DNA of 14,809 bases, taken from Glaciimonas sp. (GTDB taxonomy: Bacteria > Pseudomonadota > Gammaproteobacteria > Burkholderiales > Burkholderiaceae). Position numbers and translations under genes: made by a program. Below the pieces are notes generated by a model. The model did not search any database and had not been told where the DNA came from. It worked only from the letters and a program-made list of their open reading frames with translations. Location of the stretch: assembly GCA_014377145.1 (NCBI GenBank), contig JACMQE010000145.1:1-14809 (forward strand). The letters are read 5' to 3'. How positions within the stretch are numbered: the first letter of the stretch is position 1; each line of letters starts with the position of its first letter. Positions 501 to 14,809 of the stretch are shown here, in pieces.

Positions 501-1661
501 TCAACCTTTAGACAACTGCAACGACAATTGAAGAAACAAAGCGCTTCCCATAACAAAGGCAACATCGATTTTATCCTGATGTTCGGCCAAAAATTCATCC
601 CCAACGCGTTGAGGGCCATCCCCATAAGGCCAAATATAATCATCCACAATGATCCATCCTCCAGCCACCACCAAGTCAGCCCAAGCTAAAATATCGGTCT
701 TTGCTGCAGCATAGTTGTGATTACCGTCAATATGCAGGATCGCTATACAACCGGAATAGCGAGTTGTTCCAAACGATGTTGTAGTTACATCTCTGTGCGC
801 TCGATAATACTGTGCGCCGTCTATCGATGGCATGCGTAAATAGTTAACGTGATTGACGTTGTAAGGCAGCAGGTTCATTTCAAAAACAACAAGAGCCTCC
901 TCTGCGTCCACCTGTGCGGATACTCTATCGACCATACCTGTGTCGTCACTTTGAACTAGATGCGCATTCGACCATGGATCGACGCAGAGCAGCTTGCCGA
1001 TGGAGTAGCAACGCGCGAGTCTGGAAAGAATAAAGGCTGATTTCCCCCACCAGCTACCTATCTCGACAATATCTCCGACTGGACTATGGCGGGCAATTTC
1101 GCACAGGACACAAAATTTCTCATGGTCGCACATGCCTGGAATCACATCAGCATGTCGAAACATGGCGGCCAATTCAAGCTCCGACACTGACTGAACGGCA
1201 GCGGCATTCGAAGCCAGCTGAAACTGCCTTTCAAGCAGGCTGTGTGCGTAACTGCGAGCGGTCCTATAACCACTCAACTCTATATTTACGGGTGAGTCGT
1301 TAACGAGAGAAACACCTAGAGCAAACTCTTTCAAGACACGGTTCAAATAGTCCCAGACGACTGGATTTGGCGAATAAATCCCTATAATGTTGAATTCATC
1401 AATAGCCTTTTTTAATGCCCCTTCAAATTCTGAATTAGTGATGTACGGAAGCGACAGCCATGAGGGATATTGCTCCCGAGATGGGTCAAAGCCAAGCGAT
1501 GAAGCACCGACTACAGATTGCCCTTCCCGCAAACATTTTTGTAGGTATTCAATCGAACGTGGCATTCCCGCCGGAAAAATCAAAATGGATCTCGTCACTT
1601 CTACCTCTGCCCCACCAGAAGTAACAAAGTCGTTTGTTAACATAATTAATTTTTCGTGCAT
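501..1661 (-). CDS. SAM-dependent methyltransferase with an extra N-terminal preATP-grasp-like domain
   Basis: A 386-residue protein, last gene of the minus-strand glycan operon. The C-terminal part (about 195-385) is a class I Rossmann methyltransferase. The SAM-binding motif I is IVEIGSWWGKSA (198-209), followed by CVDPW (226-230), HIDGNHNY (310-317) and IIVDDY (337-342). That pattern is typical of a family found in sugar and polysaccharide modification clusters. Residues about 24-112 look like a different domain: a hydrophobic strand ILIFPAG, a helix, then alternating strands and helices as in the preATP-grasp fold of carbamoyl-phosphate-synthase-like ligases, with no ATP-grasp catalytic domain after it. 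That part is inference. The start at 1661 overlaps the previous gene's stop by 16 bases. An internal ATG at 1643 would remove the overlap, and neither has a clear Shine-Dalgarno. The substrate is probably a hydroxyl of the flagellin sugar, not proven. Confidence 0.82.
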   Translation of the reverse strand: MHEKLIMLTNDFVTSGGAEVEVTRSILIFPAGMPRSIEYLQKCLREGQSVVGASSLGFDPSREQYPSWLSLPYITNSEFEGALKKAIDEFNIIGIYSPNPVVWDYLNRVLKEFALGVSLVNDSPVNIELSGYRTARSYAHSLLERQFQLASNAAAVQSVSELELAAMFRHADVIPGMCDHEKFCVLCEIARHSPVGDIVEIGSWWGKSAFILSRLARCYSIGKLLCVDPWSNAHLVQSDDTGMVDRVSAQVDAEEALVVFEMNLLPYNVNHVNYLRMPSIDGAQYYRAHRDVTTTSFGTTRYSGCIAILHIDGNHNYAAAKTDILAWADLVVAGGWIIVDDYIWPYGDGPQRVGDEFLAEHQDKIDVAFVMGSALFLQLSLQLSKG

Positions 1662-2371
1662 ACAATATAGACACTTGCCGACAGTTCAGGATATTGCATA
1701 CCCATTGCGTAACAACCATCCAAGTAGTTTTGATCGATAATCTTATTTTTCATAAGTAGATCAAACTGAAAATTAGCAAACGGTTTAAAAAACACGCCGC
1801 CTCTCGACAAGATATTTAATCCAGCCAGACGAGCATCATGTTCCAACGTATCTAAACTATATGTACAACGATGACCGTGAGACAACTCACCGGCAGTCAC
1901 AGAATTATTTGTCGCAATCAAGCCCATTTTCACAGCTATCTGCCGTGACGCCGCGTTAGCGTTCGGAACGACAATGAATAGTCGTCCAGTAGGACTCAAC
2001 CAACGTCGTATGCGTGCAAGTACTGCTACAGGATCGTCCAAATGTTCCAAAGTATGAACCAAAAAAATCGTATTGTATATTTCGTCAAGCTCGGCAATTT
2101 CGATCGTAGAGTGAATGAAGTGAACTGTTGACGGAACTTTCGTTCGTGCAATAGCGATCAAACTTTCTGCGGCCTCCAACACCGTTACATCGTCAAAATA
2201 TTCCATCAGAAGGCTTGTTGAATCTCCCTCAAAACATCCTATCTCTAGGGTCTTACCTTGAGTAAAAAAAGGATATAAGCTTTTCAACGTATAGCGTCGA
2301 ATGACAAAATCGAAATCATATGAATATTGACGTAATTCATTATCTTGGTATTCGTTATTATAGTTTCTCAT
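1646..2371 (-). CDS. Class I SAM-dependent methyltransferase
   Basis: A 241-residue methyltransferase of the Methyltransf_11/23 type. It shows motif I LEIGCFEGDST (42-52), the acidic LEA after strand 2 (65-67), HTLEHLDDP (106-114), and the post-motif segment LSPTGRLFIVVPN (125-137). An ATG at 2506 in the same frame would give 286 residues, but it would overlap the PhyH gene by 125 bases and add 45 residues with no domain character. The ATG at 2371 is preferred because GAAGAA lies just upstream, it sits 10 bases after the PhyH stop, and the product has normal length for the family. It has no membrane segment and is likely cytosolic. It probably O- or N-methylates the nucleotide sugar or its acyl substituent, in step with the adjacent dioxygenase and the second methyltransferase. 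The exact substrate cannot be read from sequence. Confidence 0.85.
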   Translation of the reverse strand: MRNYNNEYQDNELRQYSYDFDFVIRRYTLKSLYPFFTQGKTLEIGCFEGDSTSLLMEYFDDVTVLEAAESLIAIARTKVPSTVHFIHSTIEIAELDEIYNTIFLVHTLEHLDDPVAVLARIRRWLSPTGRLFIVVPNANAASRQIAVKMGLIATNNSVTAGELSHGHRCTYSLDTLEHDARLAGLNILSRGGVFFKPFANFQFDLLMKNKIIDQNYLDGCYAMGMQYPELSASVYIVCTKN

Positions 2372-2381
2372 AAATATTTCT

Positions 2382-3197
2382 TCAGCCTTGACCCGGTTTA
2401 TACATACGTTTTTCTGGTGGCTGGTACCACTCATCGTAGCCATTAGGCACGCGTGAGTTATAGCCCAACAGCTGACGCATTTTTTCATTTTTAGGATAGT
2501 ATTCACCTAAGACACGTGAATAGTCCATTTGTTGTTTAAAAAATGGTCGAGTAAATGTTAACGTTAACGCCATTCTTGGCATTTGCGTAATATTCTGTGC
2601 TGCGCAATGCCAAATGTTAGAATCAAATAAAAGGACACTTCCTGCCTTTCCAGTAATTTGCACGGCATTTGATTCTAAAAATGCCTCGTTCGGTCGTTGC
2701 TGCACACGATGCGTACCTGGTACTACTTTAGTTGCACCGTTTTCAATCGTAAAATTATCCACCATGACAAGCATATTGATCATCAGGTGAAAATTTTTTG
2801 AATAGGTCCGCACATCTCGGTGAAAACGCTGAGCATGCTGATATGTATGATTAGAGTACGGCAAATTGTTTAGCGCTCCATACGAATTAAGAATATATTC
2901 TCCATCGAAATATGCGTTTATGTACGTATCTAGATAAAATTCATACAAAAACCACTCAAGGCTATCTCCACCTCCAACGACATGATGAGCAGCTCCCTCC
3001 ATTCCAATATCTAGGCCGTTTTTCTTTTGCCATTTAAGACAGAATTTCTCGCGAGAAGGAATATCGATTCGTATTTTTTCGAGCATCTCCTCGGGAACCA
3101 ACTGCTCAAATAATACAAAACCTGACACGTCCATTTGATATTGAAAATCGAGAACACTCAATTGCAAACTTGACTTTGGCTGATTACTCTCGGTCAT
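2382..3197 (-). CDS. Phytanoyl-CoA dioxygenase (PhyH) family Fe(II)/2-oxoglutarate oxygenase
   Basis: A 271-residue cupin-fold oxygenase. The iron-binding triad is visible as H126-x-D128 in FHRDVR and distal H197 in SNIWHCAAQN. Arg208 after it fits the 2-oxoglutarate-binding position. Between them ENGATKVVPGTHR (152-164) is the family's usual signature for the segment leading into the second half of the barrel. PhyH enzymes hydroxylate small molecules using O2 and 2-oxoglutarate. Inside a sugar-modification operon the likely target is the acyl group or ring of the amino sugar. The start at 3197 is preceded by the strong ribosome site GAGGGGG. A 61-base gap separates it from the upstream GNAT gene, the largest gap in the operon, so an internal promoter is possible although none is convincing. 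The methyltransferase gene follows 10 bases downstream. The family call is firm; the substrate is unknown. Confidence 0.9.
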   Translation of the reverse strand: MTESNQPKSSLQLSVLDFQYQMDVSGFVLFEQLVPEEMLEKIRIDIPSREKFCLKWQKKNGLDIGMEGAAHHVVGGGDSLEWFLYEFYLDTYINAYFDGEYILNSYGALNNLPYSNHTYQHAQRFHRDVRTYSKNFHLMINMLVMVDNFTIENGATKVVPGTHRVQQRPNEAFLESNAVQITGKAGSVLLFDSNIWHCAAQNITQMPRMALTLTFTRPFFKQQMDYSRVLGEYYPKNEKMRQLLGYNSRVPNGYDEWYQPPEKRMYKPGQG

Positions 3198-3258
3198 ATC
3201 GCCCCCTCTAAGTAGGCTACTACAGAGCTAACTAAAAGATAATTCGCGGTCAAGATCA

Positions 3259-3816
3259 TCACCCCCAGTAATTAATTTCATCAACAAATAGATGATATTT
3301 TTCGCGAGTAATGCCAACAAGAACCTTATCGTAATATTGACCGCTCCGGTAAAACCATTGTTTTTTTCTCCCTTCGATCTCCCATCCACATGACTTGACG
3401 TAAAAGTTAATAGACCTGATATTTGTCTCGATCATATCGCTATCTAATCGCATGAGACCCAGTTCATCAAAAGCGTAACGCATAATGCTCATGACAGCGT
3501 CAAGGCCAAATCCTTTTCCTCGTATGTCCACTTTTCCCAACATCACTCCATGAAAAGCATTTCTATTTTTCCAATCAATGTCGACAAGGTTTGCCGTACC
3601 TAACAACTGGCCATCGAAGGTATCAATACAAAATACCTGGTCAGAAACACTATTACTTAATGAATAAATCCACTTTTCGGTTGAAATGCTGGAATATGGG
3701 AAATGCCAACCACCAAGCTGCTTCCATATTTCTGGATCGTTTGCCCATTGGTGTAAAAGTGCAGCATCCCGAAGTTCTGGGGCTCGCATTAAAATCTTCC
3801 GTCCATGAATATTCAT
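3259..3816 (-). CDS. GNAT-family N-acetyltransferase (RimJ/RimL-like)
   Basis: A 185-residue single-domain GNAT acyltransferase. It begins with the typical ILMRAPELRDAALLHQWANDPEI (residues 8-30). The acetyl-CoA pyrophosphate loop is R99-G-K-G-F-G104 in VDIRGKGFGLDA. The motif B region is ETNIRSINFYVKSCGWEIEGR (130-150), as in RimJ/RimL and in amino-sugar acetyltransferases such as PseH. It lies one base after the stop of the divergent DegT gene (TGA-A-ATG on the minus strand), so translation is probably coupled. In this context it likely N-acylates an amino sugar made by one of the aminotransferases, which would be the analogue of VioB in viosamine pathways although VioB belongs to a different fold. 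Acetylation of flagellin itself is an alternative. Family certain, substrate inferred. Confidence 0.88.
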   Translation of the reverse strand: MNIHGRKILMRAPELRDAALLHQWANDPEIWKQLGGWHFPYSSISTEKWIYSLSNSVSDQVFCIDTFDGQLLGTANLVDIDWKNRNAFHGVMLGKVDIRGKGFGLDAVMSIMRYAFDELGLMRLDSDMIETNIRSINFYVKSCGWEIEGRKKQWFYRSGQYYDKVLVGITREKYHLFVDEINYWG

Positions 3817-3817
3817 T

Positions 3818-4798
3818 TCAACGTTTCCAATCTAGTATGATCTGGGTTATTTTTTTTAAATCTTGAATTTCATAACGTTGATCGCAAGGTATCGCGATGC
3901 ACTTATCACATAAATAAGCTTCAACGTCATCGTCGCAAGTTCGCCCTTTGACATCGGACCAATAAGACGGAATAAATACGCGCTCCGCAACCAACAATTC
4001 CCTTATTTCGGAACTAATGGTAATAAATGGATAACAAAGTGGCCCATCTACATTATTTAATTTGATCTGCAGTTGATTGAGATTTCCTAAGCACCCATGA
4101 AGAAATCTAAAGTTTTGATTACGTCTCGTTCTAATGTATTGGTAGTCAATACTTGCGAGCATTCGTCGAGTTAAACATGACATTTCAAGTGGTTCAAATT
4201 CGCTTAACGATTTCTCCGCCTGCAAATAATCTGCATAGCCTGACTGAGGGGAATCGGCTAATCGTTTAAACAAGTGAGTTATACGATTTATTGAGTCATT
4301 ATCAATTTCAGATGGCGTTTTTACAGATAACTGAGTAACGAGTAAGCCCCCATCAGGAATACCAAAAAATTTACGTGGAGAATAAATGGTTGCTAAGCAA
4401 TCCTTTGGTGCCACATAAAACGCATGGGAATGATCAAGAACAATCTGATGTTGATTAAATCTCGCAAAGATGTTTTCGACGTTGTCTGAACATACGCCGA
4501 AATAATTCACGTAAAACAGCCAATCCGTTGGCCTCACGTCGACATCACCAACAATATCAAACTGCGCATTAATATTGTAAAATAAACAATCAACTCCAGC
4601 CCTTACAAGAGGCTCAAGCATGGAATTGCAAATATATTTGGGCATCCATACACGAGTAGGTCTTCCTTCAAGGAGCAAAGCAAAAAAAGCGGCGCGAGCA
4701 GACTGAAAGCCTAATGTACCGCGATACAAAAAAGACTTTGGACTTGGCAGTTCCAGCTCAAAATAGCCGCCGATAGATGCACTAATTGCGCTGTGCAT
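3818..4798 (-). CDS. Divergent DegT/DnrJ/EryC1/StrS-type PLP-dependent aminotransferase-like protein
   Basis: A 326-residue protein, shorter than the usual 370-400 for the family. It keeps family landmarks: FQSARAAFFALL (31-42) in the cofactor phosphate region, WMPKYICNSM (51-60), the aspartate expected to contact the pyridine nitrogen, D122 in VLDHSHAFY, and the Schiff-base lysine K143 in IYSPRKFFGIPDGG (138-151). So PLP binding is probably retained. The C-terminal half is shortened and lacks the usual glycine-rich and NaxxAAxG-like segments seen in its operon neighbour. Its start overlaps the WbqC stop by 17 bases, and its stop lies one base before the GNAT start, placing it firmly in the amino-sugar pathway. 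It may aminate a second keto sugar or an acyl-type substrate, or may have lost activity. WbqC-DegT pairing suggests the two act together. Moderate confidence in fold, low in reaction. Confidence 0.75.
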   Translation of the reverse strand: MHSAISASIGGYFELELPSPKSFLYRGTLGFQSARAAFFALLLEGRPTRVWMPKYICNSMLEPLVRAGVDCLFYNINAQFDIVGDVDVRPTDWLFYVNYFGVCSDNVENIFARFNQHQIVLDHSHAFYVAPKDCLATIYSPRKFFGIPDGGLLVTQLSVKTPSEIDNDSINRITHLFKRLADSPQSGYADYLQAEKSLSEFEPLEMSCLTRRMLASIDYQYIRTRRNQNFRFLHGCLGNLNQLQIKLNNVDGPLCYPFITISSEIRELLVAERVFIPSYWSDVKGRTCDDDVEAYLCDKCIAIPCDQRYEIQDLKKITQIILDWKR

Positions 4799-5534
4799 TT
4801 ATCTGCTCCGCAACAATATCAATTGCATTATTTTGAGAACAAATTAAGCTAAAAGCTTTAAGACGATGCTTAATATTTACACTTCCTAACGCCATCAAAG
4901 TATCAATAATTGAAAGCAATGGCACAAACTGCTCCCCGAATTGTAAGTAGTTCATTGATAACGATTGAATAAATTTGAGATCAATGCTCTGCTCCCGAAA
5001 CACTTCTTCTGAATATAAATTTACCCCTCCTATAGCATTAACATAAGTATCCCCACTCACAGCGATGCAAAGCGCAATCACCTTATCCTGATTTTTCAAA
5101 TTATGATCGATAGCGATGTGGGAGGAAATCTTGATCGCCGTAACAATTCCCAAGTGTTCACAAGTTTTTACGATGGAGTGATGAAGAAATTTAAAAAGAT
5201 TTTTTTCCTGAAACTGAATGATTCGCTCGACCAAGGCAAATGTCTGTGAAAAATATGGCGCATGTTTATATGCCTCTCTAATTTGATTCAGCAATTTGTC
5301 TCGATTAAAACCTAAAGCTAATTCCCGTTCGCGCACGTCCAGGTAATCAGAATCTTTTTTCAGTGGCAACGAAACCATGGCACTCTTACCATTTTGCAAT
5401 ATACGATTACGGTTTATCCATCCCTTTTTTGTGTATTTTATGTTGTCATACAATATAAATACATCGACCGCTGCGATTAGCTGAAAGTAACCAATATAGG
5501 GGAAAAAATAAGGCTGCATAATAGCTACCTTCAT
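4782..5534 (-). CDS. WbqC-family protein
   Basis: A 250-residue member of the WbqC family, recognised from its N-terminus: AIMQPYFFPYIGYFQLIAAVD (residues 4-24), ILYDNIKYTKKGWINRNRI (27-45), then a basic segment with SLPLKKDSDY. WbqC proteins occur in O-antigen and other surface-sugar loci, usually beside sugar aminotransferases. Their reaction is not settled, and transfer of an amino acid or acyl group to an amino sugar is a common suggestion. No signal peptide or membrane segment is present, so it is probably cytosolic. It starts 47 bases after the VioA-like gene and its last 17 bases overlap the next gene. No strong Shine-Dalgarno is seen, only GAAG about eight bases before the ATG. Placed between two aminotransferases, it most likely acts on the sugar amino group. 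Confidence 0.88.
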   Translation of the reverse strand: MKVAIMQPYFFPYIGYFQLIAAVDVFILYDNIKYTKKGWINRNRILQNGKSAMVSLPLKKDSDYLDVRERELALGFNRDKLLNQIREAYKHAPYFSQTFALVERIIQFQEKNLFKFLHHSIVKTCEHLGIVTAIKISSHIAIDHNLKNQDKVIALCIAVSGDTYVNAIGGVNLYSEEVFREQSIDLKFIQSLSMNYLQFGEQFVPLLSIIDTLMALGSVNIKHRLKAFSLICSQNNAIDIVAEQINAQRN

Positions 5535-5581
5535 TTTACAAACTTCATCATTGTTAAATTTTCCACCTTTATCTTGTCGGG

Positions 5582-6712
5582 TTATATTAAATTAACAATA
5601 GCGTCGATTTGTGACGTTTTTAATCCGGGATAAATCGGCAAGCAAATTACCTGCTCTGCTACTTTTTTCGCTGTCAACAAATTTGAGTGCACAGCCGAGG
5701 GCATTCCTCGATACATTGGAAAATCGCTAATCAGTGGATAAAAATAGCGTCGCGCGTAAATTTTATTTACACGTAGCTTTTGGTATAAATCATCACGGAG
5801 TAAGGGATATTCAGGTTCCACCAAAATTGGAAAGTATGCATAATTTTCTACCTCATTCGCAGAAACAGAAATACAACGTATCCCTTTAACCCCAGCCAGA
5901 GTTTCACGGTAACGGGCATCAATCGCTTTGCGTAGCAGTATTGCATCGTCAATACCTTTGAGTTGCAACAAACCAATGGCTGCATTAATTTCACTCATTT
6001 TGCCGTTGATACCGGGCGCAACGACGGTGACTTCATCGACAAAGCCAAAATTCTTCAGATGGTCAATATGTTGTTTAGTCTTGGCATCCGGTGAGATGAT
6101 CGCTCCACCTTCAAATGTATTGAATACCTTAGTCGCGTGAAAACTCAGCACAGACAGATCGCCATGATTAAGTACACTGTTACCGCTAGTCTGCACACCG
6201 AACGCATGCGCAGCATCGTAAATAACCTTTAAGCCATAGTTGTCGGCAATCTTTTGTATACGCACCACATCGCAAGGATGGCCGTAGCAATGCACAGGCA
6301 TGATGGCGGTAGTTTGGGGAGTGATTGCAGCTTCAATTTTCTCCGGGTCGATATTGAACGTCTCAGGGTCAATATCCACAAACACTGGTTTGATACCATT
6401 CCAAAGAAGCGAATGTGCTGTCGCCACAAAAGAATAAGGTGTTGTAATAACCTCGCCACCAATACGTAAAGCTTGCAAGGCTGTGATTAAAGCGATTGTC
6501 CCATTAGCAAATAAGGAGATATGTTTAACCCCAAGATAATTACATAAGGCAAGTTCCAGTTGTTGATGAAAAACCCCGCCATTAGTTAAAATTTTATTTT
6601 CCCAAATCTGTTCAAGATAAGGTAAAAAATCCTTAAGCGGGGGTAACAGCGGTTGCGATACATAAATCGGCAACCCTATATCGCAGTCATCTATTCTCGG
6701 AGCTCTTTTCAT
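5582..6712 (-). CDS. vioA: VioA-like DegT/DnrJ/EryC1/StrS sugar aminotransferase (probable dTDP-4-amino-4,6-dideoxyglucose transaminase)
   Basis: A full-length 376-residue PLP-dependent sugar aminotransferase. Landmarks in order: LPPLKDFLPYLEQIWENK (23-40) and LTNGG (42-46), SLFANGTIALITALQAL (66-82), TTPYSFVATAHSLLWNG (90-106), D166 in IYDAAHAFG, the Schiff-base lysine K195 in LSFHATKVFNTFEGG (189-203), and MSEINAAIGLLQL, the segment reaching across the dimer. The N-terminal pattern and the SFHATKVFNTFEGG loop match VioA-type enzymes, which convert dTDP-4-keto-6-deoxy-D-glucose plus glutamate to dTDP-viosamine (Qui4N). A related 3- or 4-amino specificity cannot be excluded. No rmlA or rmlB is present here, so the substrate must be made elsewhere. 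Its ATG overlaps the stop of the OGT-like gene as ATGA, which shows translational coupling of glycan synthesis and transfer. The symbol is assigned by resemblance and is not proven. Confidence 0.85.
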   Translation of the reverse strand: MKRAPRIDDCDIGLPIYVSQPLLPPLKDFLPYLEQIWENKILTNGGVFHQQLELALCNYLGVKHISLFANGTIALITALQALRIGGEVITTPYSFVATAHSLLWNGIKPVFVDIDPETFNIDPEKIEAAITPQTTAIMPVHCYGHPCDVVRIQKIADNYGLKVIYDAAHAFGVQTSGNSVLNHGDLSVLSFHATKVFNTFEGGAIISPDAKTKQHIDHLKNFGFVDEVTVVAPGINGKMSEINAAIGLLQLKGIDDAILLRKAIDARYRETLAGVKGIRCISVSANEVENYAYFPILVEPEYPLLRDDLYQKLRVNKIYARRYFYPLISDFPMYRGMPSAVHSNLLTAKKVAEQVICLPIYPGLKTSQIDAIVNLI

Positions 6713-9324
6713 TTTTTACTCAACTTTGGCGACGTAATTTCAAAAGATTTTGTTGGTAAGCCTACGCACCAGTTTTGCCACATTACGCGTAATGCACCAA
6801 TAACGCTTACCGCTATTAAATTAGGGTCTCTGAGCGGAGATGCGCTCAAACGGTTGCGCAAACTAGCTCTCAATCCTGCCAATTCATTTAAATTTTTGCT
6901 CCAGTAAATGGCCGTATTCACAAAATCGTCGTCTGTCCTAACTGCAAATTTTTGCAAACCAACATGAGATAAAATGCACACTCCGGTACGTCCAGCGATT
7001 GTTGTACCTACCTTGGTCAACGTCGGCACTCCCATCCATAGAGCATGCAACGTCGTCGTCCCGCCGTTATAAGGAAAAGTGTCTAAGCAAATATCCACTT
7101 TCTGTAGCTGCTCGAGATAAATATCAATATTGCACCGACCGAAAAAAATCAATCGATCTCGTTCAATTCCATATTCTTTAAAGATATTGATCAAATGTTG
7201 AAAGTTTCCATCTGAAGGTAAACCACCAAGAAAAAAATTACTGGACGGAACAGCAACTAACAATCGTGACCAAACTGCGACGACATCACGCGATATTTTA
7301 CTTATACGATTAAAACTGGCGAATGTTACATAACCGTTTAACAACGCTGGCAAAGGATTTACTTCAGGGCTGCGCTCATGAGGTTGGAAAGCTGCTGAAG
7401 CTGGTAAACGAACAAGTTTTTCTGAGAAAAATTGATCAAACTCACCCTCAGGTAGAAAATAACGATCGGTTAAGTAATAATCCATTGCATGCAATCCTGT
7501 CGTACCTGGATAACCGATCCAACTAATCTGCACAGGCGCTGCTTTATGCGCAAACACGACCAATCTATTCTTTGCGGTATGTCCTGACAAATCAAATAAA
7601 ATATCTATCCTATCTTCTTGTATTTTTTTTACAACTTCAACATCGGACAATGTATGAATTTTTGTCCAAAAATGAAATTTTTCTTTTAATTCGACCGTAA
7701 CATCATCGTCATTGATATTGTTTGCGTACGCATATAAATTGATACTTACGTTGTTTTTCAAATAATCGAGTATTGGTAAAATAAAAGTAGCGACAGCGTG
7801 GTTATAAAAATCTCCAGAAACGATTCCAACTCTTAAACATCGATCCAGCGTTTTATCATTATCATGTTTAGGCCACTGTGCAATTAAATCTCGCTCCACA
7901 CGCTCACCAAATCTTCGATGTTCGACAAACAGCTGTTCGGCACCACAAGCTGGACTTTCTCCTAGTAAAAATAAAATTGCAGTATTGGCCTCGTTATCAT
8001 TGGGATTTACCTCCATTGCTTTTCGAAAATAAGTCAACGTCGTGTCAGCGGGCTCATTTAAATTCCAACTAACATAACCAAGTAAGCGCTGTGGCCCACT
8101 CATGGCTGGATTGAACTCTGAGTATTTTTCAAAATACGGCCTCGCCTTCACGTACTGCTTCATTTCAAAATACACCACCCCTAAATTATTATAAGCATCT
8201 GGATAAGCAGGTTTTAATTCAATCGCGTGAAGAAAATGATCAACCGCACTATTGAACTCCTTGAGTTCATAACAAGCCAGGCCGAGAACGTTTTGCGCTT
8301 CGGCCATGGCAGGGTTGAGTTGAACAGCTTTAATTGCGATAGATTTCGCGTCGATATAGGCACGTTTAATAATCAGGACTAAAACAAGATTAATATATCC
8401 AAAAATAAAATCTCTGTGTTGCGCTATTAGCGCTCTAAAACAAGCCTCGGCCTCATCGAATTGGCCATTTGATCTGAGTAAGTTACCTAAATTGTTATAG
8501 GCCTCTAGCATGCTTGGATTTATACGGATTGCTTCGCGATAATGATGGTCAGCCAGCGCTATGTGCGCTAGTCGTCCGCAGCAAATTGCCAAATTGAAAT
8601 GAGCAACCGCATCATTTGGCAAAATTCTCACCGCATTTTCAAAACTGATTAAGGCCCCTGAAATATTGGCTAACTCAAGCAACGCAAGTCCGTTAAACTT
8701 CCAAGTGATACCGTTATTTTTATTTTTATTTATAGTTTTTTTTGTAAATTTCTCAAGCGCTTTAAACTCACTACGCTGAAACAAAATCGTCATTCGACTT
8801 ATTTCAGAAGATAACGATTTTTTGTCATTAACCAAGCCAGCAATAACATTATTAGTTGGCAATTTAATATTTTTATTGTCAACACCAAGATTATTTATAT
8901 CAAACTCTATTTCTTGAAATTCATCCGTGTGTTGTTTGCCGTCTGAAATCAAGTTATCTGAAATATAATAGGATCTTAGCTTTACTGCTTCATCAACAAG
9001 GCCTTGCTGACCGACTTTGTTTAGGATAGCTACATACTCATCCCAGTAAACAGGATTACTTGGCAATGCTCGTATTGCTGCCTCAATATGCTGTAACGCT
9101 TCTTCTATTTGCAAAGTATGAAAAAGAATTTTTGCTAAACAAAAATTCGCATCAGGATGATCTGGTGCATATTGCAAAACTAGCCGATAACAAGCTGCTT
9201 CTTTTACTTGATTATGGCCTTCGCCCGATGACTTTGCCAACGCCATTAGTTGAACAAGCTCCTGCTGAAAAGCAGCATCGAGAGCCTCTGTTTGAACATA
9301 ATTTGATTGAGTAACGTCGCTCAT
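6709..9324 (-). CDS. TPR-containing SPINDLY/OGT-family O-glycosyltransferase, probable flagellin glycosyltransferase
   Basis: An 871-residue GT41-type enzyme, first gene of the operon and divergent from fliC. Residues about 40-120 hold TPR-like helices, a charged Asn/Lys-rich linker follows (about 126-175), then a second TPR array (about 176-445) with several canonical AYNNLG repeats. The catalytic region (about 495-850) shows SGDFYNHAV with H509 at the position of human OGT His498, FDLSGHTAKNRL (577-588), APVQISWIGYPGTTG (596-610), FASFNRISK with K676 at the position of human Lys842, and CLDTFPYNGGTTTLHALWMGVP (746-767). It should transfer a sugar from a nucleotide donor to Ser/Thr hydroxyls, with the TPR superhelix holding the protein acceptor. 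The neighbouring Ser/Thr-rich flagellin is the obvious target. AAAGG lies eight bases upstream of the ATG. Donor sugar unknown; the family default is UDP-GlcNAc, while the operon suggests an activated amino-deoxy sugar. Confidence 0.92.
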   Translation of the reverse strand: MSDVTQSNYVQTEALDAAFQQELVQLMALAKSSGEGHNQVKEAACYRLVLQYAPDHPDANFCLAKILFHTLQIEEALQHIEAAIRALPSNPVYWDEYVAILNKVGQQGLVDEAVKLRSYYISDNLISDGKQHTDEFQEIEFDINNLGVDNKNIKLPTNNVIAGLVNDKKSLSSEISRMTILFQRSEFKALEKFTKKTINKNKNNGITWKFNGLALLELANISGALISFENAVRILPNDAVAHFNLAICCGRLAHIALADHHYREAIRINPSMLEAYNNLGNLLRSNGQFDEAEACFRALIAQHRDFIFGYINLVLVLIIKRAYIDAKSIAIKAVQLNPAMAEAQNVLGLACYELKEFNSAVDHFLHAIELKPAYPDAYNNLGVVYFEMKQYVKARPYFEKYSEFNPAMSGPQRLLGYVSWNLNEPADTTLTYFRKAMEVNPNDNEANTAILFLLGESPACGAEQLFVEHRRFGERVERDLIAQWPKHDNDKTLDRCLRVGIVSGDFYNHAVATFILPILDYLKNNVSINLYAYANNINDDDVTVELKEKFHFWTKIHTLSDVEVVKKIQEDRIDILFDLSGHTAKNRLVVFAHKAAPVQISWIGYPGTTGLHAMDYYLTDRYFLPEGEFDQFFSEKLVRLPASAAFQPHERSPEVNPLPALLNGYVTFASFNRISKISRDVVAVWSRLLVAVPSSNFFLGGLPSDGNFQHLINIFKEYGIERDRLIFFGRCNIDIYLEQLQKVDICLDTFPYNGGTTTLHALWMGVPTLTKVGTTIAGRTGVCILSHVGLQKFAVRTDDDFVNTAIYWSKNLNELAGLRASLRNRLSASPLRDPNLIAVSVIGALRVMWQNWCVGLPTKSFEITSPKLSKK

Positions 9325-9376
9325 TGCCGCCTTTATCTAATTGGCATCACATTGAATGTTCTCATTACGGCAATTT

Positions 9377-9405
9377 ATTATCGTAAAAATAATAATTCAC
9401 GGCAA
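9377..9405 (-). promoter_or_regulatory. Possible sigma-70 promoter of the glycan operon
   Basis: On the minus strand TTGCCG (9405-9400) and GATAAT (9382-9377) stand 17 bases apart, matching four of six and five of six consensus positions. This would give a leader of about 45 bases before the ATG at 9324. The region is AT-rich, so a chance match is possible. No sigma-28 or sigma-54 promoter was found for this operon. Confidence 0.4.
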
Positions 9406-9585
9406 AAAACATCATTGAATGCGATTCGATCTCACACCAATACAACTTAGAATAACAAATTTCGGCATGAAATAAACACAGAATAAGCTGATATTTACCC
9501 TCAAGTATTTCGATTTGATGTCGTGGAACGGAACTAAAACTAAAACTTTACACACAAAATAAAATATTTACTTGGGGAAATTCAT

Positions 9586-9612
9586 TAAACTTTTTAAAAG
9601 ACTGTCCGATAC
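9586..9612 (+). promoter_or_regulatory. FliA (sigma-28) promoter of fliC
   Basis: TAAACTTT (9586-9593), an 11-base spacer, then TCCGATAC (9605-9612). This agrees with the sigma-28 consensus TAAAGTTT-N11-GCCGATAA at 13 of 16 positions with exact spacing. Transcription would start near 9619, leaving a leader of about 86 bases. It places fliC among the late class flagellar genes. Confidence 0.75.
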
Positions 9613-9704
9613 CTGATAGCAACGGCGGTCCGATAATTAAAGATGGACAGACCAAAGTTTAAGGCGAGAGCCAAATTCATTTAACTTAGGTAAGGGGAAT
9701 AAAA

Positions 9705-11528
9705 ATGTCTTCAGTTATCAATACAAATATTGCTTCGCTCAATGCGCAACGCAATTTAAGCACTTCACAAGCTTCACTCAACACATCCTTGCAACGCTTA
9801 TCTTCTGGTCTGCGCATTAATAGCGCAAAAGACGATGCAGCTGGTTTGGCAATTTCAGAACGTTTCACCTCGCAAATTGGCGGCACTAACCAAGCTGTAC
9901 GTAATGCAAATGATGGTATATCACTTGCGCAAACAGCTGAGGGAGACTTAGCGCAAATTGGCTCTAACTTGCAACGTATCCGCGATCTAGCTGTTCAATC
10001 AGCAAATGCGTCTAATAGCGCATCAGATCGTGCAGCGATCAACAACGAAGCAACTCAACTTATTTCTGAAATTGACCGTGTTGCAAGCGGCTCCAACTTC
10101 AATGGCGTGAGTTTACTGAACGGTACTTTTAACAAACAATCTTTTCAAGTGGGCGCAAATGGGACTGCAAATGACAGGATTGATGTTGCATCAATCGCAA
10201 GTGCAAAATCTTCGTCCTTAGGCGTTGGTGCAGGCTCAAGTTATACAACAAGTCTTTCGGGCGGCACAAATGGCGTTGGTGGATTTAGCTCTGGCGACTT
10301 GGTCATTAACGGCTTTAACGTTGGTGCAACGAGTAATGATGGCGTTTCTTACGCAGATGCAAAAGGTAGCGCGATTGCCAAAGCAGCCGCCATTAATACC
10401 GCAAGCGGCTCAACGGGTGTTACTGCAACAGTAAATGCAACGACAACAACAGGCACAGCTGCAACCGGTTTTGCCACAGCGATCACTGCTGGGGCAGTAT
10501 TGATTAATGGCACTGATATAGGTGCACTGGCTGCGGCTGGTAGTGCTGCAGAACGCGGAGCACAAGTCACCGCAGCAATTAATTCCAAATCTAGTCAAAC
10601 TGGTGTTACTGCAACATTTGATTCATCTACGGGTGCTGTTGATTTGGCAGCAGCAGACGGTAGAAATATCACGGTATCTAAAACTGATGCGTCTTCAGGT
10701 CTTGCCGCAACAGTAACTGGCTTAGGAAGTACCACTGCAGGTTCGGCAACTGCTGTCAGCACAGCAGCGGTTACAACAACTACGGCTGGTACGCTTAAGC
10801 TCAGTTCAACAAGCTCAGCTGGTATTGTTCTTGCGAACGGAGGTGCTGGTGCAGCAACTAGCGGTACAACCATCACAACGACAAGTGCTATCAGCATTGC
10901 ATCAGGTGACATCCAAATTAACGGCGTGGATATCGGCGCAATTACTGGTGGTGCATCTGCAACATTGAATGGTGCAGCGATTGCTGACGCGATCAATTTA
11001 AAAACTAAAGATACGGGCGTTACAGCAGCAAACGCAGCTGGCGTTGTGACTTTAACCAGCTCACAAAACGCTGGCTACACCTTTACTATTAAAGGTACTG
11101 CTGCAGTTACTGCAGATACTGGTTTTAGTGCTGGCACTACCACTGTTGCCGGTAAAGGTGCCACAGCTGCAGGGCTCACCGCTGGAGCAACAGCGGCAAC
11201 GACAACCGTTGGTGCTGGTGTCTCTTCGCTTGACTTAACGACTGCATCTGGTGCCACCGCAGCATTAGCAACAATTGACTCGGCGCTTTCCTCAATCAAT
11301 AGTTCGCGTGCTTCTTTGGGTGCTTACCAAAACCGTTTTGCATCTGCGGTCAGCAGCTTGCAAACGACAGGCGAAAACTTGACAGCATCACGTAGCCGTA
11401 TTCGCGATGCAGATTTTGCACAAGAAACAGCACAATTGACTCGCGGTCAAGTATTGCAACAAGCCGGCACAGCGATCTTGGCACAGGCAAATGCTTTGCC
11501 ACAGGGTGTTCTGGCACTTCTGCGGTAA
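9705..11528 (+). CDS. fliC: Flagellin
   Basis: A 607-residue flagellin, the subunit of the flagellar filament, exported through the flagellar type III apparatus. The conserved N-terminal D0/D1 region (1-170) includes INTNIASLNAQRNL and LQRLSSGLRINSAKDDAAGLAIS. The C-terminal D1/D0 region (about 508-607) includes SRIRDADFAQETAQLTR and ends ANALPQGVLALLR. Between them lies a long variable region rich in Ala, Thr, Ser and Gly, with three flagellin hook IN motifs starting GDLVINGFNVG (198), GAVLINGTDIG (263) and GDIQINGVDIG (401). This surface-exposed part has many potential O-glycosylation sites. It is longer than a minimal flagellin of under 300 residues and somewhat longer than E. coli-type subunits. 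The ATG has AAGGGGA six bases upstream and a sigma-28 promoter further up. A hairpin terminator follows. No lysine-methylase gene is visible nearby; the glycan operon is divergent. Confidence 0.97.
   Translation: MSSVINTNIASLNAQRNLSTSQASLNTSLQRLSSGLRINSAKDDAAGLAISERFTSQIGGTNQAVRNANDGISLAQTAEGDLAQIGSNLQRIRDLAVQSANASNSASDRAAINNEATQLISEIDRVASGSNFNGVSLLNGTFNKQSFQVGANGTANDRIDVASIASAKSSSLGVGAGSSYTTSLSGGTNGVGGFSSGDLVINGFNVGATSNDGVSYADAKGSAIAKAAAINTASGSTGVTATVNATTTTGTAATGFATAITAGAVLINGTDIGALAAAGSAAERGAQVTAAINSKSSQTGVTATFDSSTGAVDLAAADGRNITVSKTDASSGLAATVTGLGSTTAGSATAVSTAAVTTTTAGTLKLSSTSSAGIVLANGGAGAATSGTTITTTSAISIASGDIQINGVDIGAITGGASATLNGAAIADAINLKTKDTGVTAANAAGVVTLTSSQNAGYTFTIKGTAAVTADTGFSAGTTTVAGKGATAAGLTAGATAATTTVGAGVSSLDLTTASGATAALATIDSALSSINSSRASLGAYQNRFASAVSSLQTTGENLTASRSRIRDADFAQETAQLTRGQVLQQAGTAILAQANALPQGVLALLR
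10296..11030 (+). repeat. Three flagellin hook IN motif repeats within fliC
   Basis: Encoded repeats cover residues 198-241, 263-304 and 401-442 (bases 10296-10427, 10491-10616 and 10905-11030). Each starts with a G-x-x-x-I-N-G-x-x-I/V-G strand pair, continues with an Ala-rich helix containing AAIN or ADAIN, and ends TGVTA. The first two copies also share the 15-base DNA identity GGTGTTACTGCAACA at 10416-10430 and 10602-10616. The third is more diverged. Confidence 0.75.
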
Positions 11529-11570
11529 TCAACAATGAAAGAGGACTAGTTCTTCATTGACAAAATGCAA

Positions 11571-11606
11571 TCCCCTGTTCAATTTATTTGACCAGGGGAA
11601 TTTTAC
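11571..11606 (+). terminator. Terminator or attenuator between fliC and flaG
   Basis: TCCCCTG (11571-11577) pairs with CAGGGGA (11593-11599). An inner TCAA/TTGA pairing (11579-11582 with 11588-11591) extends the stem and leaves a five-base loop. ATTTTACTT follows. It ends about 15 bases before the flaG ATG, so partial read-through would supply flaG at a lower level than fliC. A weaker hairpin CAATGAA/TTCATTG (11533-11539, 11553-11559) lies just before it. Confidence 0.65.
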
Positions 11607-11620
11607 TTAAGGAAACAATC

Positions 11621-12001
11621 ATGAGTATCCCATCATTAGGAAATCAAATAGCATCTGGAATACCAATTTCAGACAATATCCCGACCTCGAATACGACTCA
11701 ACAATTTGCTAAAGCTTCGGCACCATTGGAAAGCAATAATCCAGTTACGCAATCGGATCGAGTTTCCAAAGTAGCTACAATCGAGCAAGTGACCAAGGCC
11801 GTACAAGACATTAACAATGCGATTCAGGCAACTTCACAAGGTCTTGAATTTAGTGTCGACAAAAGCGCACACGAAGTTATCGTAAAGCTCATCGATCAGC
11901 AAACTAAACAAGTACTTCGTCAAATTCCGACTCAAGAAGCACTGGAAATTGCTAAGTCGCTCGATAAATTGCAAGGCTTACTCATTAAACAAACCGCGTA
12001 G
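11621..12001 (+). CDS. flaG: FlaG family flagellar protein
   Basis: A 126-residue FlaG protein. The conserved C-terminal core (about 58-122) has LEFSVDKSAHEVIVKLIDQQTK (75-96), then VLRQIPTQEALEIAKSLDKLQGLL (98-121), matching the family pattern FSVDE-x-T-VVKVID-T-EVIRQIP. The first 50 residues are polar and probably disordered. FlaG is found between fliC and fliD in many bacteria and affects filament length, but its mechanism is not settled. The ATG at 11621 is chosen because AAGGAAA stands seven bases upstream; a TTG 33 bases earlier in the same frame lies inside the terminator hairpin and is unlikely. It depends on read-through from fliC or an unseen promoter. A hairpin overlapping the fliD promoter probably ends its transcript. 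Confidence 0.93.
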   Translation: MSIPSLGNQIASGIPISDNIPTSNTTQQFAKASAPLESNNPVTQSDRVSKVATIEQVTKAVQDINNAIQATSQGLEFSVDKSAHEVIVKLIDQQTKQVLRQIPTQEALEIAKSLDKLQGLLIKQTA

Positions 12002-12033
12002 TTTATAAATAATGCTTAGATTAAAAACAAACG

Positions 12034-12066
12034 GGCAAATCCCCTTCTAAAGTTTGATTTGCCTTT
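12034..12066 (+). terminator. Hairpin terminator of flaG, overlapping the fliD promoter
   Basis: GGCAAATC (12034-12041) and GATTTGCC (12056-12063) form an eight-base perfect stem with a 14-base loop, followed by only three T before GCCG. The short T-run makes termination partial at best. The loop contains the sigma-28 -35 element and the right arm lies in the promoter spacer. Confidence 0.5.
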
Positions 12067-12074
12067 GCCGATAA
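12048..12074 (+). promoter_or_regulatory. Perfect-consensus FliA (sigma-28) promoter of fliD-fliS-fliT
   Basis: TAAAGTTT (12048-12055), an 11-base spacer, GCCGATAA (12067-12074): all 16 positions of the enterobacterial sigma-28 consensus match. The start of transcription would be near 12081, giving a leader of about 28 bases to the GTG at 12109. It makes fliD, fliS and probably fliT a late flagellar operon with its own promoter. Confidence 0.93.
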
Positions 12075-12108
12075 TCTAGTACAGTGTTATCAAGCAAAGG
12101 AGAGTCAA

Positions 12109-14175
12109 GTGGGCATTCAATCAACAGGTATCGGTTCGGGTCTGGACGTAACAACTCTCATCACTAAACTGATGCAAGTAGAGAGCCAACCACTAACGGC
12201 ATTAGCAACTAAAGAAGCTAGCTTTCAAGCCAAATTATCTGCCTATGGAACCCTCAATAGCGCTGTTAGCGGATTTCAAAGTGCCCTTACATCACTAAGT
12301 AAACCAACTACGTTTCAGTCCCTTTCAGGAACATCTAGCGATGCGACTATTGCATCGGCATCAGCATCTAGTGCTGCAAGTGCTGGATCATATAGCATAA
12401 CCGTTACCAAACTGGCACAAGCGCAAGGCATTTCAAGTATCGGAAAAGTAAGCTCTACTGATGCTATCGGAGATGGTGTAGCTACCACCTTGACGTTTCA
12501 ATTTGGTACGATTGTTGGCACGATTGATACTGCCACGACTACGCCAGGTCCACCACCACTACCCAACCCTAATTTAGGTAAATATCAGGCTGGCGCTACG
12601 TTCACTCAAGATGCGAACCAAACGACAGGTACAGTGACAATTGATAGTAAAAATAATTCGTTACAAGGTATTAGAGACGCTGTTAATGCGGCCAATGTTG
12701 GAGTAAGTGCCTCTATCGTCGGGGATGGCAGTGCCACGCCATACCATTTGGTACTAAACTCGAGCAAAACTGGTTTGGCATCAAGCCTTAAGATTACCGG
12801 CACTGGTGGTGATGGGGCCGTGACGAACCTAGTTGGCAATGATCCAGCCGGGGTGCAGAATTTTACAGAAGTGACTGCCGCACAAAATGCTGAACTTAAA
12901 ATAAATGGAATAAACATTACGAGTGCCGCAAATAGCGTTTCTGGCGCTATTCAAGGCGTCTCTATTAATTTGACCAAAGTTGGTACTACCTCTGTTTCTG
13001 TGTCCGCTAATACCAGTGCAATACAAACTGGAGTAACCAGCTTTGTAAAGGCGTATAACGACCTGAACACGACGATAAAGTCCTTATCTGGATACAATGC
13101 CAGTACAAAAAAGGGAGGATTGCTGCTGGGCGACTCGACTACGCAAGGCATTCAAAACCAGATACGCAATACATTATCTACCGCAGTCAATGGATTAGGA
13201 GGTGGATTTACTAATTTAACGCAGATTGGGGTGAGTTTTCAAAAAGATGGCTCACTTACCCTGGATGCAGAAAAATTGACAGCTGCTTTAAGTACTAATT
13301 ACTCCGACGTCGGTGGATTATTTGCCTCAATAGGTAAAGCGTCTGACAGTTTGATCAGTATTGCAGGGTCAAGCAGCGCAACAAAACCAGGTAGTTACGC
13401 TTTAGTTGTTAACCAAGTGTCAACACAAGGTATATTGACCGGAAATTCCCCCCCTGCCGAACCAATTACGATTGCACTTAACACCACATTGAGTGTGACC
13501 CTAGATGGCATCAATGCCAGCGTCAGTCTGGCTGCTGGCACGAGTTACACAAGAGCGCAATTAGCAACGTTATTACAGACATCGATCAACGGAAACACCG
13601 CGTTTTCGTCCGCTGGATCATCGATTGTTGCGAGCATAGATGGCAATAATAATTTGGTTCTCAAATCAAATAAATATGGCTCAACATCGAGTATCAGTAT
13701 AGCCAACGGCTCTAGTGGAACAACCGCCAGCTCATTAATCGGAAGTGCACCAATTTTGAGCAATGGAGTCAATGTTGCGGGGACACTAAATGGAATATCC
13801 GCAATCGGTTCTGGACAAACACTAACGGGTGCAAAGGGAACCGATGCTGAAGGGCTTCAACTATTAGTTGCGGGAGGGACCCAAACTGCTAGAGGAACAA
13901 TCAATTTTTCGCGCGGTTATGCGTTTCAACTCGATAAGCTACTAAGTGGCTTTGTTGGCAGCAGCGGTACTATTTCAAGTTCAACCACAGGCGTTAACAA
14001 CAGCATTAAAGAAATTGGGAAGCAAAGGGTGACGTTAAACAATCGATTATTTGATATCGAGGCAAGATACCGTGCCCAATTCACCGCGTTAGATAAAGTA
14101 ATTAGTAGTCTAAATAATACAAGTACATTTTTGACACAGCAACTTGCAGCACTTAGTGGCACAACTAAATTTTAG
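12109..14175 (+). CDS. fliD: Flagellar filament cap protein FliD (hook-associated protein 2)
   Basis: A 688-residue FliD, which forms the pentameric cap that guides flagellin assembly at the filament tip. The start is GTG at 12109, supported by AAAGGAG six bases before it and by the family's N-terminal GIGSGLDVTTLITKLMQVE (7-25). FliD_N covers about 8-105. Residues 258-292 (NAELKINGINITSAANSVSG and on) are the middle IN-type motif. FliD_C starts near 300 (TSFVKAYNDLN) and resumes after about 580, ending with the coiled-coil segment IEARYRAQFTALDKVISSLN (650-669). It is far longer than the roughly 450-480 residues of enterobacterial FliD because about 170 residues are inserted at about 415-590. 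These resemble the protein's own residues 92-290. Its own sigma-28 promoter lies directly upstream, and fliS follows after 33 bases. Confidence 0.96.
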   Translation: MGIQSTGIGSGLDVTTLITKLMQVESQPLTALATKEASFQAKLSAYGTLNSAVSGFQSALTSLSKPTTFQSLSGTSSDATIASASASSAASAGSYSITVTKLAQAQGISSIGKVSSTDAIGDGVATTLTFQFGTIVGTIDTATTTPGPPPLPNPNLGKYQAGATFTQDANQTTGTVTIDSKNNSLQGIRDAVNAANVGVSASIVGDGSATPYHLVLNSSKTGLASSLKITGTGGDGAVTNLVGNDPAGVQNFTEVTAAQNAELKINGINITSAANSVSGAIQGVSINLTKVGTTSVSVSANTSAIQTGVTSFVKAYNDLNTTIKSLSGYNASTKKGGLLLGDSTTQGIQNQIRNTLSTAVNGLGGGFTNLTQIGVSFQKDGSLTLDAEKLTAALSTNYSDVGGLFASIGKASDSLISIAGSSSATKPGSYALVVNQVSTQGILTGNSPPAEPITIALNTTLSVTLDGINASVSLAAGTSYTRAQLATLLQTSINGNTAFSSAGSSIVASIDGNNNLVLKSNKYGSTSSISIANGSSGTTASSLIGSAPILSNGVNVAGTLNGISAIGSGQTLTGAKGTDAEGLQLLVAGGTQTARGTINFSRGYAFQLDKLLSGFVGSSGTISSSTTGVNNSIKEIGKQRVTLNNRLFDIEARYRAQFTALDKVISSLNNTSTFLTQQLAALSGTTKF

Positions 14176-14208
14176 TCTGCTTTTAGAAAAAAATAGAGGA
14201 ATATCGAT

Positions 14209-14679
14209 ATGTTTGGCTCATCTCAAGCTCATGGCGCAAACGCTTATGCAAAGGTTGGTATTGAAACTGGCGTGATTGCAGCCAGTCCACACAAACTCAT
14301 CGTAATGCTGTTTGAAGGTGCGATCGTGGCATTATCAAACGCCATTACGCAAATGAACAATGGTGATATTGCTGCCAAGGGTCACTCAATCTCGAAGGCT
14401 ATTGCGATTATCGATAGTGGGCTACGCGCTAGCTTGGATAAAAAAGCTGGTGGCGAGATTGCGGTTAGTTTAGATTCATTGTATGAATATATGAACAATC
14501 GCTTACTTCTCGCAAATCTCAATAACCAAGTTGAATTATTAGGCGAAGTACAAATTTTGCTACGTGACTTAAAGTCGTCTTGGGAAGCCATTTCTCCGTC
14601 AAATACGTCGTTAGTAGAAAAAACACGCTCACCAGTTGATGCACTCTCACCCCGCGCTGTCAATTATCTTGAGGCATGA
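14209..14679 (+). CDS. fliS: Flagellar export chaperone FliS
   Basis: A 156-residue FliS, the cytosolic chaperone that binds the disordered C-terminus of flagellin and prevents premature polymerisation. Family landmarks are NAYAKVGIETGVIAASPHKLI (11-31), MLFEGAI (33-39), the helix with KGHSISKAIAIIDSGL (57-72), GGEIAVSLDSLYEYMNNRLL (81-100) and LRDLKSSWEAI (118-128). About 25 extra residues follow the conserved core, a tail rich in Ser and Pro that is commonly variable. AGAGGA lies eight bases before the ATG. It sits 33 bases after fliD and seven bases before fliT, so it is co-transcribed from the fliD promoter. If the filament is glycosylated, FliS-bound flagellin in the cytosol would be the substrate pool for the OGT-like enzyme. 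Confidence 0.96.
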   Translation: MFGSSQAHGANAYAKVGIETGVIAASPHKLIVMLFEGAIVALSNAITQMNNGDIAAKGHSISKAIAIIDSGLRASLDKKAGGEIAVSLDSLYEYMNNRLLLANLNNQVELLGEVQILLRDLKSSWEAISPSNTSLVEKTRSPVDALSPRAVNYLEA

Positions 14680-14685
14680 TTCAAC

Positions 14686-14809
14686 ATGAATAGTCTAGAA
14701 CTCATTTCTTTGTATGAAAATGTGGCAACGATCACCACCAATATGCTAGATGCTGCACGCACCAGCGATTGGGATTTATTAACGCAGTTGGAATTAGATT
14801 GTTCGAGAA
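14686..14809 (+). CDS. fliT: FliT-like flagellar chaperone, N-terminal part (3' truncated by window edge)
   Basis: The frame opens with ATG at 14686, six bases after the fliS stop, and is still open at the window end (41 complete codons). The residues MNSLELISLYENVATITTNM and then SDWDLLTQLELDC form two amphipathic helices with the W-x-x-L-x-x-L-E-x-x-C pattern seen in FliT-type chaperones of beta- and gammaproteobacteria. FliT binds FliD before export and in enterobacteria restrains FlhDC. GAGG stands 11 bases upstream, a somewhat long spacing, and overlaps the end of fliS, so translation may be coupled. The call rests on the partial sequence plus the fliD-fliS-fliT order. Confidence 0.8.
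   Translation, partial: MNSLELISLYENVATITTNMLDAARTSDWDLLTQLELDCSR

What the first reader, a model, noticed from the sequence alone, without database searches (positions are those of the whole stretch)
501..9324. Eight-gene flagellin glycosylation island predicted to make and attach a heavily tailored amino-deoxy sugar
Seen: OGT-like transferase, VioA-like aminotransferase, WbqC, divergent DegT protein, GNAT, PhyH dioxygenase and two methyltransferases, all on one strand with short gaps or overlaps, divergent from fliC. Known: Pseudomonas syringae flagellin carries modified viosamine made by a vioA-containing island with acyl- and methyltransferases. Inference: this operon makes a related glycan, but the WbqC, second DegT and PhyH genes imply a different, possibly undescribed decoration. 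I cannot tell whether this exact gene set has been described.
Basis: partly seen in the sequence, partly recalled or inferred. Interest (0 to 1): 0.75.

Follow-up and report, generated by a model that had tools for sequence, protein, structure and literature searches.

The report
Flagellin sugar operon with aminoacyl arm
Next to the flagellin gene of a probable Undibacterium-like bacterium lies an operon that probably decorates the flagellum with a 4-amino-6-deoxy sugar carrying an amino-acid arm, and comparing it with known surface sugars suggests what two uncharacterised protein families do.

The parts
6709..9324 (-). GT41 (OGT/SPINDLY-like) glycosyltransferase with N-terminal TPRs, 871 aa; predicted flagellin O-glycosyltransferase
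   Evidence: Glyco_transf_41 E 4.8e-46 and TPR families
5582..6712 (-). VioA-type aminotransferase, 376 aa; predicted dTDP-4-keto-6-deoxyglucose -> dTDP-Qui4N
   Evidence: PF01041 E 2.3e-101; best NCBIfam model DesI, below its cut-off; 71% DNA identity over 717 bp to annotated E. coli vioA; 67-68% protein identity to two E. coli VioA
4782..5534 (-). WbqC family protein, 250 aa; predicted ATP-dependent aminoacyl-amino-sugar ligase
3818..4798 (-). DegT2, 326 aa, no Pfam family; PLP enzyme predicted to invert the aminoacyl arm
3259..3816 (-). GNAT acyltransferase, 185 aa; predicted to N-cap the aminoacyl arm
   Evidence: Acetyltransf_3 E 1.3e-16; 62% identical full length to the GNAT of the E. 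coli O123/O186 cluster
2382..3197 (-). PhyH-type Fe(II)/2-oxoglutarate hydroxylase, 271 aa
   Evidence: PF05721 E 2.4e-18; H126, D128, H197, R208 invariant in 8 members (their roles recalled)
1646..2371 (-). class I methyltransferase MT2; probable start ATG at 2371 rather than GTG at 2506
   Evidence: Methyltransf_23 E 2e-18; ATG
501..1661 (-). MT1, 386 aa: Methyltransf_24/TylF-like domain (199-342) behind an N-terminal domain (22-136) like that of ATP-grasp proteins of sister islands; predicted sugar O-methyltransferase
   Evidence: PF13578 E 2.6e-16, TylF E 5.7e-5 just under its cut-off; hhalign prob 96.8, E 2.4e-10 to the ATP-grasp cluster
9325..9704 (.). divergent intergenic region, with a sigma28-like site 9586-9612 (3 mismatches) before fliC
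9705..11528 (+). fliC flagellin, 607 aa; predicted acceptor
   Evidence: Flagellin_N E 4.5e-42, Flagellin_C E 8.9e-25

Best explanation
The operon makes and attaches to flagellin a 4-amino-4,6-dideoxyglucose (Qui4N, viosamine) whose 4-amine bears a capped amino-acid arm. Steps: (1) host RmlA/RmlB supply dTDP-4-keto-6-deoxyglucose (inferred; RmlB seen in relatives, RmlA not searched); (2) VioA aminates it (well supported by homology); (3) WbqC activates an amino acid with ATP and joins it to the 4-amine, as BshC joins cysteine to an amino sugar (BshC's reaction recalled; inferred from fold, gene replacement and O-antigens of known structure); (4) DegT2 forms a PLP aldimine with the arm's free amine and inverts its alpha carbon, most likely L-Ala to D-Ala (inferred, the weakest step); (5) the GNAT acylates that amine, perhaps with 3-hydroxybutanoyl (inferred); (6) PhyH hydroxylates, MT2 and MT1 methylate, MT1 probably a sugar hydroxyl (inferred); (7) GT41 transfers the sugar to Ser/Thr of flagellin (inferred from context). 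Predicted residue mass: 302.148 Da for Qui4N-Ala-hydroxybutanoyl, 346.174 with two methyls and one oxygen (arithmetic; an acetyl cap with the same tailoring would also give 302.148).
Against: No chemistry was measured. WbqC-BshC similarity is not seen by sequence profiles (hhalign prob 0.1; Viterbi P 0.007, prob 5.6), and Foldseek alone gives only E 2e-3. DegT2's role rests on two O-antigens; the table also lists Qui4N with D-Asp, L-Asp and L-allothreonine and a review passage an N-(R)-3-hydroxybutyryl-L-alanyl Qui4N, whose gene clusters I did not see. MaoC, which may supply hydroxybutyryl-CoA in O123, is found in none of the fetched loci but three E. coli ones, nor in the window. The window GNAT is 59% to L101 but 33% to L100, so the cap may differ between islands. 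L100 has the eight genes without flagellar genes nearby; 7 of 24 well-flanked GT41 loci also lack them. The FemX-like matches are weak.
Confidence: 0.62

Rival explanations
1. DegT2 is a second sugar aminotransferase, making a diamino sugar, and WbqC acylates it with a simple acid.
For: DegT2 has the fold and catalytic Lys/Asp of sugar aminotransferases.
Against: The loci hold an amino-acid-loader candidate of one of three unrelated kinds. O123, whose cluster has DegT2, is listed with a mono-amino Qui4N bearing D-Ala. No gene of the window looks like a maker of a second keto group on the sugar.
Confidence: 0.12
2. DegT2 makes the free D-amino acid, or aminates an arm loaded as a keto acid (pyruvate to alanyl), rather than inverting a loaded L-amino acid.
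For: Transamination is what its fold usually does; D-Ala in O123 fits either route.
Against: The FemX-like and L-amino-acid-ligase replacements would be expected to load L-amino acids (family knowledge, not tested).
Confidence: 0.22
3. The glycan goes to lipopolysaccharide or another protein, and sits by fliC by chance.
For: The core is common in loci with a recognised Wzx flippase (17 of 55); the L100 island has no flagellar hit in 56 kb.
Against: No flippase, polymerase or other glycosyltransferase among the genes between GGDEF and fliC; GT41-flagellar association; conserved block in L101.
Confidence: 0.12
4. A plain P. syringae-type modified viosamine: Qui4N with a directly attached 3-hydroxybutanoyl and a 2-O-methyl.
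For: VioA and methyltransferase in both.
Against: The seven P. syringae genes include VioB, VioS, VioR and an ACP, and no WbqC or second DegT; no VioS, VioR or ACP gene is seen here.
Confidence: 0.08

Closest known systems
E. coli O123/O186 O-antigen cluster (L086, L129)
   Same: VioA, WbqC, DegT2, GNAT in the same order; GNAT 62%, DegT2 40%, WbqC 34% identical
   Different: Polymer cluster with Wzx/Wzy, own rfbA/rfbB and MaoC; no PhyH, MT1-type methyltransferase or GT41 in the annotated stretch
E. coli O121 / Shigella dysenteriae 7 O-antigen cluster (L084)
   Same: VioA-WbqC-GNAT; WbqC 38%
   Different: No DegT2; a different GNAT (25% over 79 residues); glycine instead of alanine in the listed sugar
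Pseudomonas syringae viosamine island (PMC3927599)
   Same: Modified viosamine on flagellin; aminotransferase and methyltransferase
   Different: Acyl route by ACP, VioS, VioR and VioB; the sugar sits on rhamnose; no WbqC or DegT2
Enterobacterial flagellin glycosylation islands (PMC4875605; Dickeya zeae WH1, PMC9650423)
   Same: Island at fliC with GT41 in many strains, aminotransferases, methyltransferases, lower GC; WbqC and a DegT protein reported together in D. zeae WH1
   Different: fliC-fliA site; in our Enterobacter-type loci an ATP-grasp and FkbM protein follow DegT2; no function assigned to WbqC in the passage read
Bacillithiol synthase BshC
   Same: Fold over 224 of 250 residues; joins an amino acid to a sugar amine (recalled)
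   Different: No significant sequence similarity; 540 residues in the matched chain; makes a thiol cofactor rather than a surface glycan (recalled)

Membership tests
Flagellin glycosylation island | glycosyltransferase and sugar genes beside the flagellin gene | tested here: met
   conserved in L101
Flagellin glycosylation island | flagellin carries the glycan | not testable with these tools
   needs mass spectrometry
GT41 (OGT-like) | Glyco_transf_41 catalytic domain with TPRs | tested here: met
VioA (dTDP-Qui4N aminotransferase) | DegT family, close to annotated VioA | tested here: met
   71% DNA identity over 717 bp, 67-68% protein identity; none of the 16 NCBIfam models hit reached its cut-off
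WbqC-like (PF08889) | match over the gathering score | tested here: met
   219.8 bits against 21.3
BshC bacillithiol synthase | sequence membership (profile similarity) | tested here: not met
   hhalign prob 0.1; no BshC family hit
BshC bacillithiol synthase | same fold of the catalytic core | tested here: met
DegT_DnrJ_EryC1 (PF01041), for DegT2 | match to the Pfam model | tested here: not met
   no hit
DegT_DnrJ_EryC1 (PF01041), for DegT2 | fold and PLP Lys/Asp | tested here: met
P. syringae viosamine island | VioB, VioS, VioR, ACP acyl route | tested here: not met
   no such gene among the eight; the rest of the genome is not held
E. coli O123-type aminoacyl-Qui4N module | VioA, WbqC, DegT2 and O123-type GNAT together | tested here: met
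E. coli O123-type aminoacyl-Qui4N module | product is an N-acyl-D-alanyl Qui4N | not testable with these tools
   needs glycan analysis

The most novel reading that the evidence does not exclude
WbqC is a family of BshC-fold, ATP-dependent ligases that put amino acids on nucleotide-linked amino sugars, and the Pfam-less DegT2 family are PLP enzymes that invert the loaded amino acid; together they give flagellin a D-amino-acid-bearing sugar. Over a thousand uncharacterised homologues of DegT2 would gain a predicted function.
Probability: 0.4. Interest if true: 0.72.

Novelty: new variant of a known kind. Interest (0 to 1): 0.58.

Why it matters
Flagellin sugars shape motility and recognition by hosts and phages. 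WbqC is called functionally uncharacterised in the 2017 paper I saw a passage of. DegT2 has 1408 relatives in one search; of the 120 listed, those with a source name are called hypothetical or DegT-family proteins. Fold, gene replacement and O-antigen structures point to one testable reaction for each, and would let aminoacyl-sugar arms be predicted from genomes.

Tried and rejected
Sequence searches did not place WbqC or DegT2 (PDB sequences; PHROGs). A profile test of WbqC against 18 BshC sequences (of 19 extracted one over 620 aa was left out, and a few others were shortened by the choice of start) was negative, so I claim fold only. I tested whether a MaoC gene, the likely source of hydroxybutanoyl in O123, accompanies the module: it was found only in three E. 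coli loci, so the acyl group stays open. A sigma28 pattern with the wrong spacer found nothing; the right spacer found two sites, 7 of 200 shuffles reaching two. Sigma-70 and terminator scans were at chance level. A diamino sugar was considered and set aside. Whether the Burkholderia cenocepacia flagellin island (recalled: Qui4N with hydroxybutanoyl) has this gene set could not be checked; the two papers I asked for are not held. I hoped E. coli O114 (listed with L-serine on Qui3N) would test the DegT2 idea; it was not found among the regions I opened. Literature searches for WbqC with flagellin, WbqC alone, viosamine flagellin, BshC with WbqC, the gene set and alanyl-sugar flagellin gave, in the listings and passages seen, no description of this function. 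The library holds open-licence papers only, so 'not in print' is not claimed. Limits: loci are the best 80 of 348 DegT2 relatives plus one from the plasmid search, so all percentages are conditional on DegT2; two of the 80 come from one Polaromonas genome. Genes in loci were called by a simple open-frame rule and home-made HMMs, Wzx by two clusters and flagellar genes by FliC/FliD/FliS only. Kinship was not corrected in any count.
Full report
What is there. The window reads, left to right: end of a GGDEF gene, eight minus-strand genes (501-9324), a 380-bp divergent gap, then fliC, a FlaG-like frame, fliD and fliS on the plus strand. The eight genes are MT1, MT2, PhyH, GNAT, DegT2, WbqC, VioA and GT41, transcribed from GT41 towards MT1. 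The island is 40.6% GC against 45.0% for 9705-14809, while MT1 has 46.6%.

Conservation. A DegT2 search in 392 genomes of one family gave 11 genomes with a match. All 11 loci were scanned as 2-4-kb stretches and three were read further. L101, a 13.7-kb contig of G355, has the same eight genes in the same order, then FliC, FlaG-like, FliD and FliS divergent, with a GGDEF remnant at the far end. L102 has part of DegT2, two MT2-like regions, MT1 and GGDEF on a 5-kb contig. Among 81 other DegT2 loci (80 best of 348 in genome contigs, plus L001) seven hold GT41, VioA-type AT, WbqC, DegT2, GNAT, PhyH and MT2 together; six of these also hold FliC/FliD (L015, L021, L024, L034, L037, L043) and L009 does not. 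None of the 81 holds all eight; MT1 is in L006, L041 and L049. Identity is patchy: against L101 GNAT 59% but GT41 36%; against L100 MT1, MT2 and PhyH 66-70% but GNAT 33%. This looks like exchange of parts.

Flagellar or polysaccharide. In 55 loci with at least 8 kb on each side, 17 have GT41 and flagellar genes, 7 GT41 only, 2 flagellar only, 29 neither (Fisher p 1.1e-6, kinship not corrected). All 17 loci with a recognised Wzx lack flagellar genes. So the VioA-WbqC-DegT2 core is shared between polysaccharide and flagellin systems, and the GT41 version goes mostly with flagella.

Replacement of WbqC. Of 82 DegT2 loci (window included), 67 hold WbqC but no LAL-type ATP-grasp, 12 the reverse, 1 both (L032, the ligase about 8 kb away on the other strand), 2 neither. 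WbqC is directly upstream of DegT2 in 55; elsewhere it lies further off or on the other strand. The ATP-grasp protein examined carries an L-amino-acid-ligase C-terminal domain and is directly upstream of DegT2 in all 12. Of the two exceptions L046 begins 53 bp before DegT2; L061 has two proteins of one cluster with weak matches, one to a FemX-type alanyltransferase (E 1.9e-5, far below cut-off), both to Acetyltransf_6 under its cut-off. Three unrelated candidate amino-acid loaders in the same neighbourhood argue that an amino acid is loaded. The slot after DegT2 holds a GNAT (32), a sulfotransferase (16) or another ATP-grasp type (10); the other 24 have something else or nothing recognised.

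Known structures. E. coli O121 has rfbB, rfbA, VioA-type AT, WbqC, GNAT and no DegT2 (13 of 5426 genomes hold this WbqC). S. dysenteriae 7, whose antigen equals O121 (recalled), is listed with N-acetylglycyl-Qui4N (PMC10609480, table); its GalNAcA and amide fit the tviB, epimerase and asnB genes seen. E. coli O123/O186 has the AT, WbqC, DegT2, GNAT and MaoC (DegT2 in 10 of 5426 genomes). O123 is listed with N-[(S)-3-hydroxybutyryl]-D-alanyl-Qui4N. Thus the achiral amino acid goes without DegT2 and D-alanine with it. Two antigens are a small sample, and other amino acids listed on Qui4N (D-Asp, L-Asp, L-allothreonine; an L-alanyl one) come from clusters I did not see. The window GNAT belongs to the O123 subclade (52-64% to its members, at most 34% between the subclade's two queries and the rest). 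N-acetyl-D-alanyl-Qui4N is also listed from Pseudoalteromonas (PMC3210612 passage).

Tailoring and transfer. PhyH keeps H126, D128, H197, R208 in 8 members. MT1's N-terminal region resembles the N-terminal region of ATP-grasp proteins found after DegT2 in sister islands (prob 96.8, E 2.4e-10), a methyltransferase apparently in place of the ATP-grasp core. GT41 catalytic residues were not mapped. The window has no rmlA or rmlB; 7 of 8 relatives searched have an RmlB above cut-off, G008 (L039) only weaker matches; RmlA was not searched.

Literature. Read: PMC4875605 parts 1-3 of 6; PMC3927599 part 1 of 5 and passages; PMC10609480 passages and the tables section; passages of PMC3210612, PMC9650423 and PMC5532660. 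D. zeae WH1 carries WbqC and a DegT protein between fliA and fliC, without a function stated in the passage; WbqC is called functionally uncharacterised in PMC5532660.

Verdict. A real, conserved, probable flagellin glycosylation operon. The new content is a concrete mechanism for its two unexplained enzymes, with support from fold, gene replacement and known antigens, and no direct biochemical proof.

Noticed in passing
window 501-1661 (residues 22-136 of MT1): N-terminal domain homologous to that of ATP-grasp proteins that follow DegT2 in other islands, here fused to a TylF-like methyltransferase.
   Followed up: partly
L087:4324-5738 (Vibrio phage vB_VpS_PG28): A gene annotated as bacillithiol-type deacetylase overlaps by one base a gene with a partial WbqC match.
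   Followed up: no
L128:5893-9339 (E. coli isolate AB66 plasmid 5): Aminotransferase, GNAT, another annotated PLP-type enzyme (ACC deaminase/D-cysteine desulfhydrase) and ATP-grasp in a row: a possible parallel solution.
   Followed up: no
window 12048-12074: Perfect match to a sigma28 consensus (recalled) upstream of fliD.
   Followed up: no
L006:5526-6575 and L041:6653-7747: A clustered protein between MT2 and MT1 in two related islands; the L006 member is a leucine-rich repeat protein by Pfam.
   Followed up: no
L010, L018, L020 and 13 other loci: A sulfotransferase-type protein takes the place of the GNAT after DegT2, suggesting sulfated arms.
   Followed up: partly
L056 and L080: Two LAL-type ATP-grasp genes flank DegT2, perhaps adding two amino acids.
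   Followed up: no
L088 (Proteus mirabilis H63): A 4.08-Mb record labelled plasmid carries aminotransferase, GT2, WbqC, DegT2 and epimerase genes; by size probably a chromosome.
   Followed up: partly
L100:3968-8242: Two GT41 units in one open frame in the Collimonas-like island.
   Followed up: no
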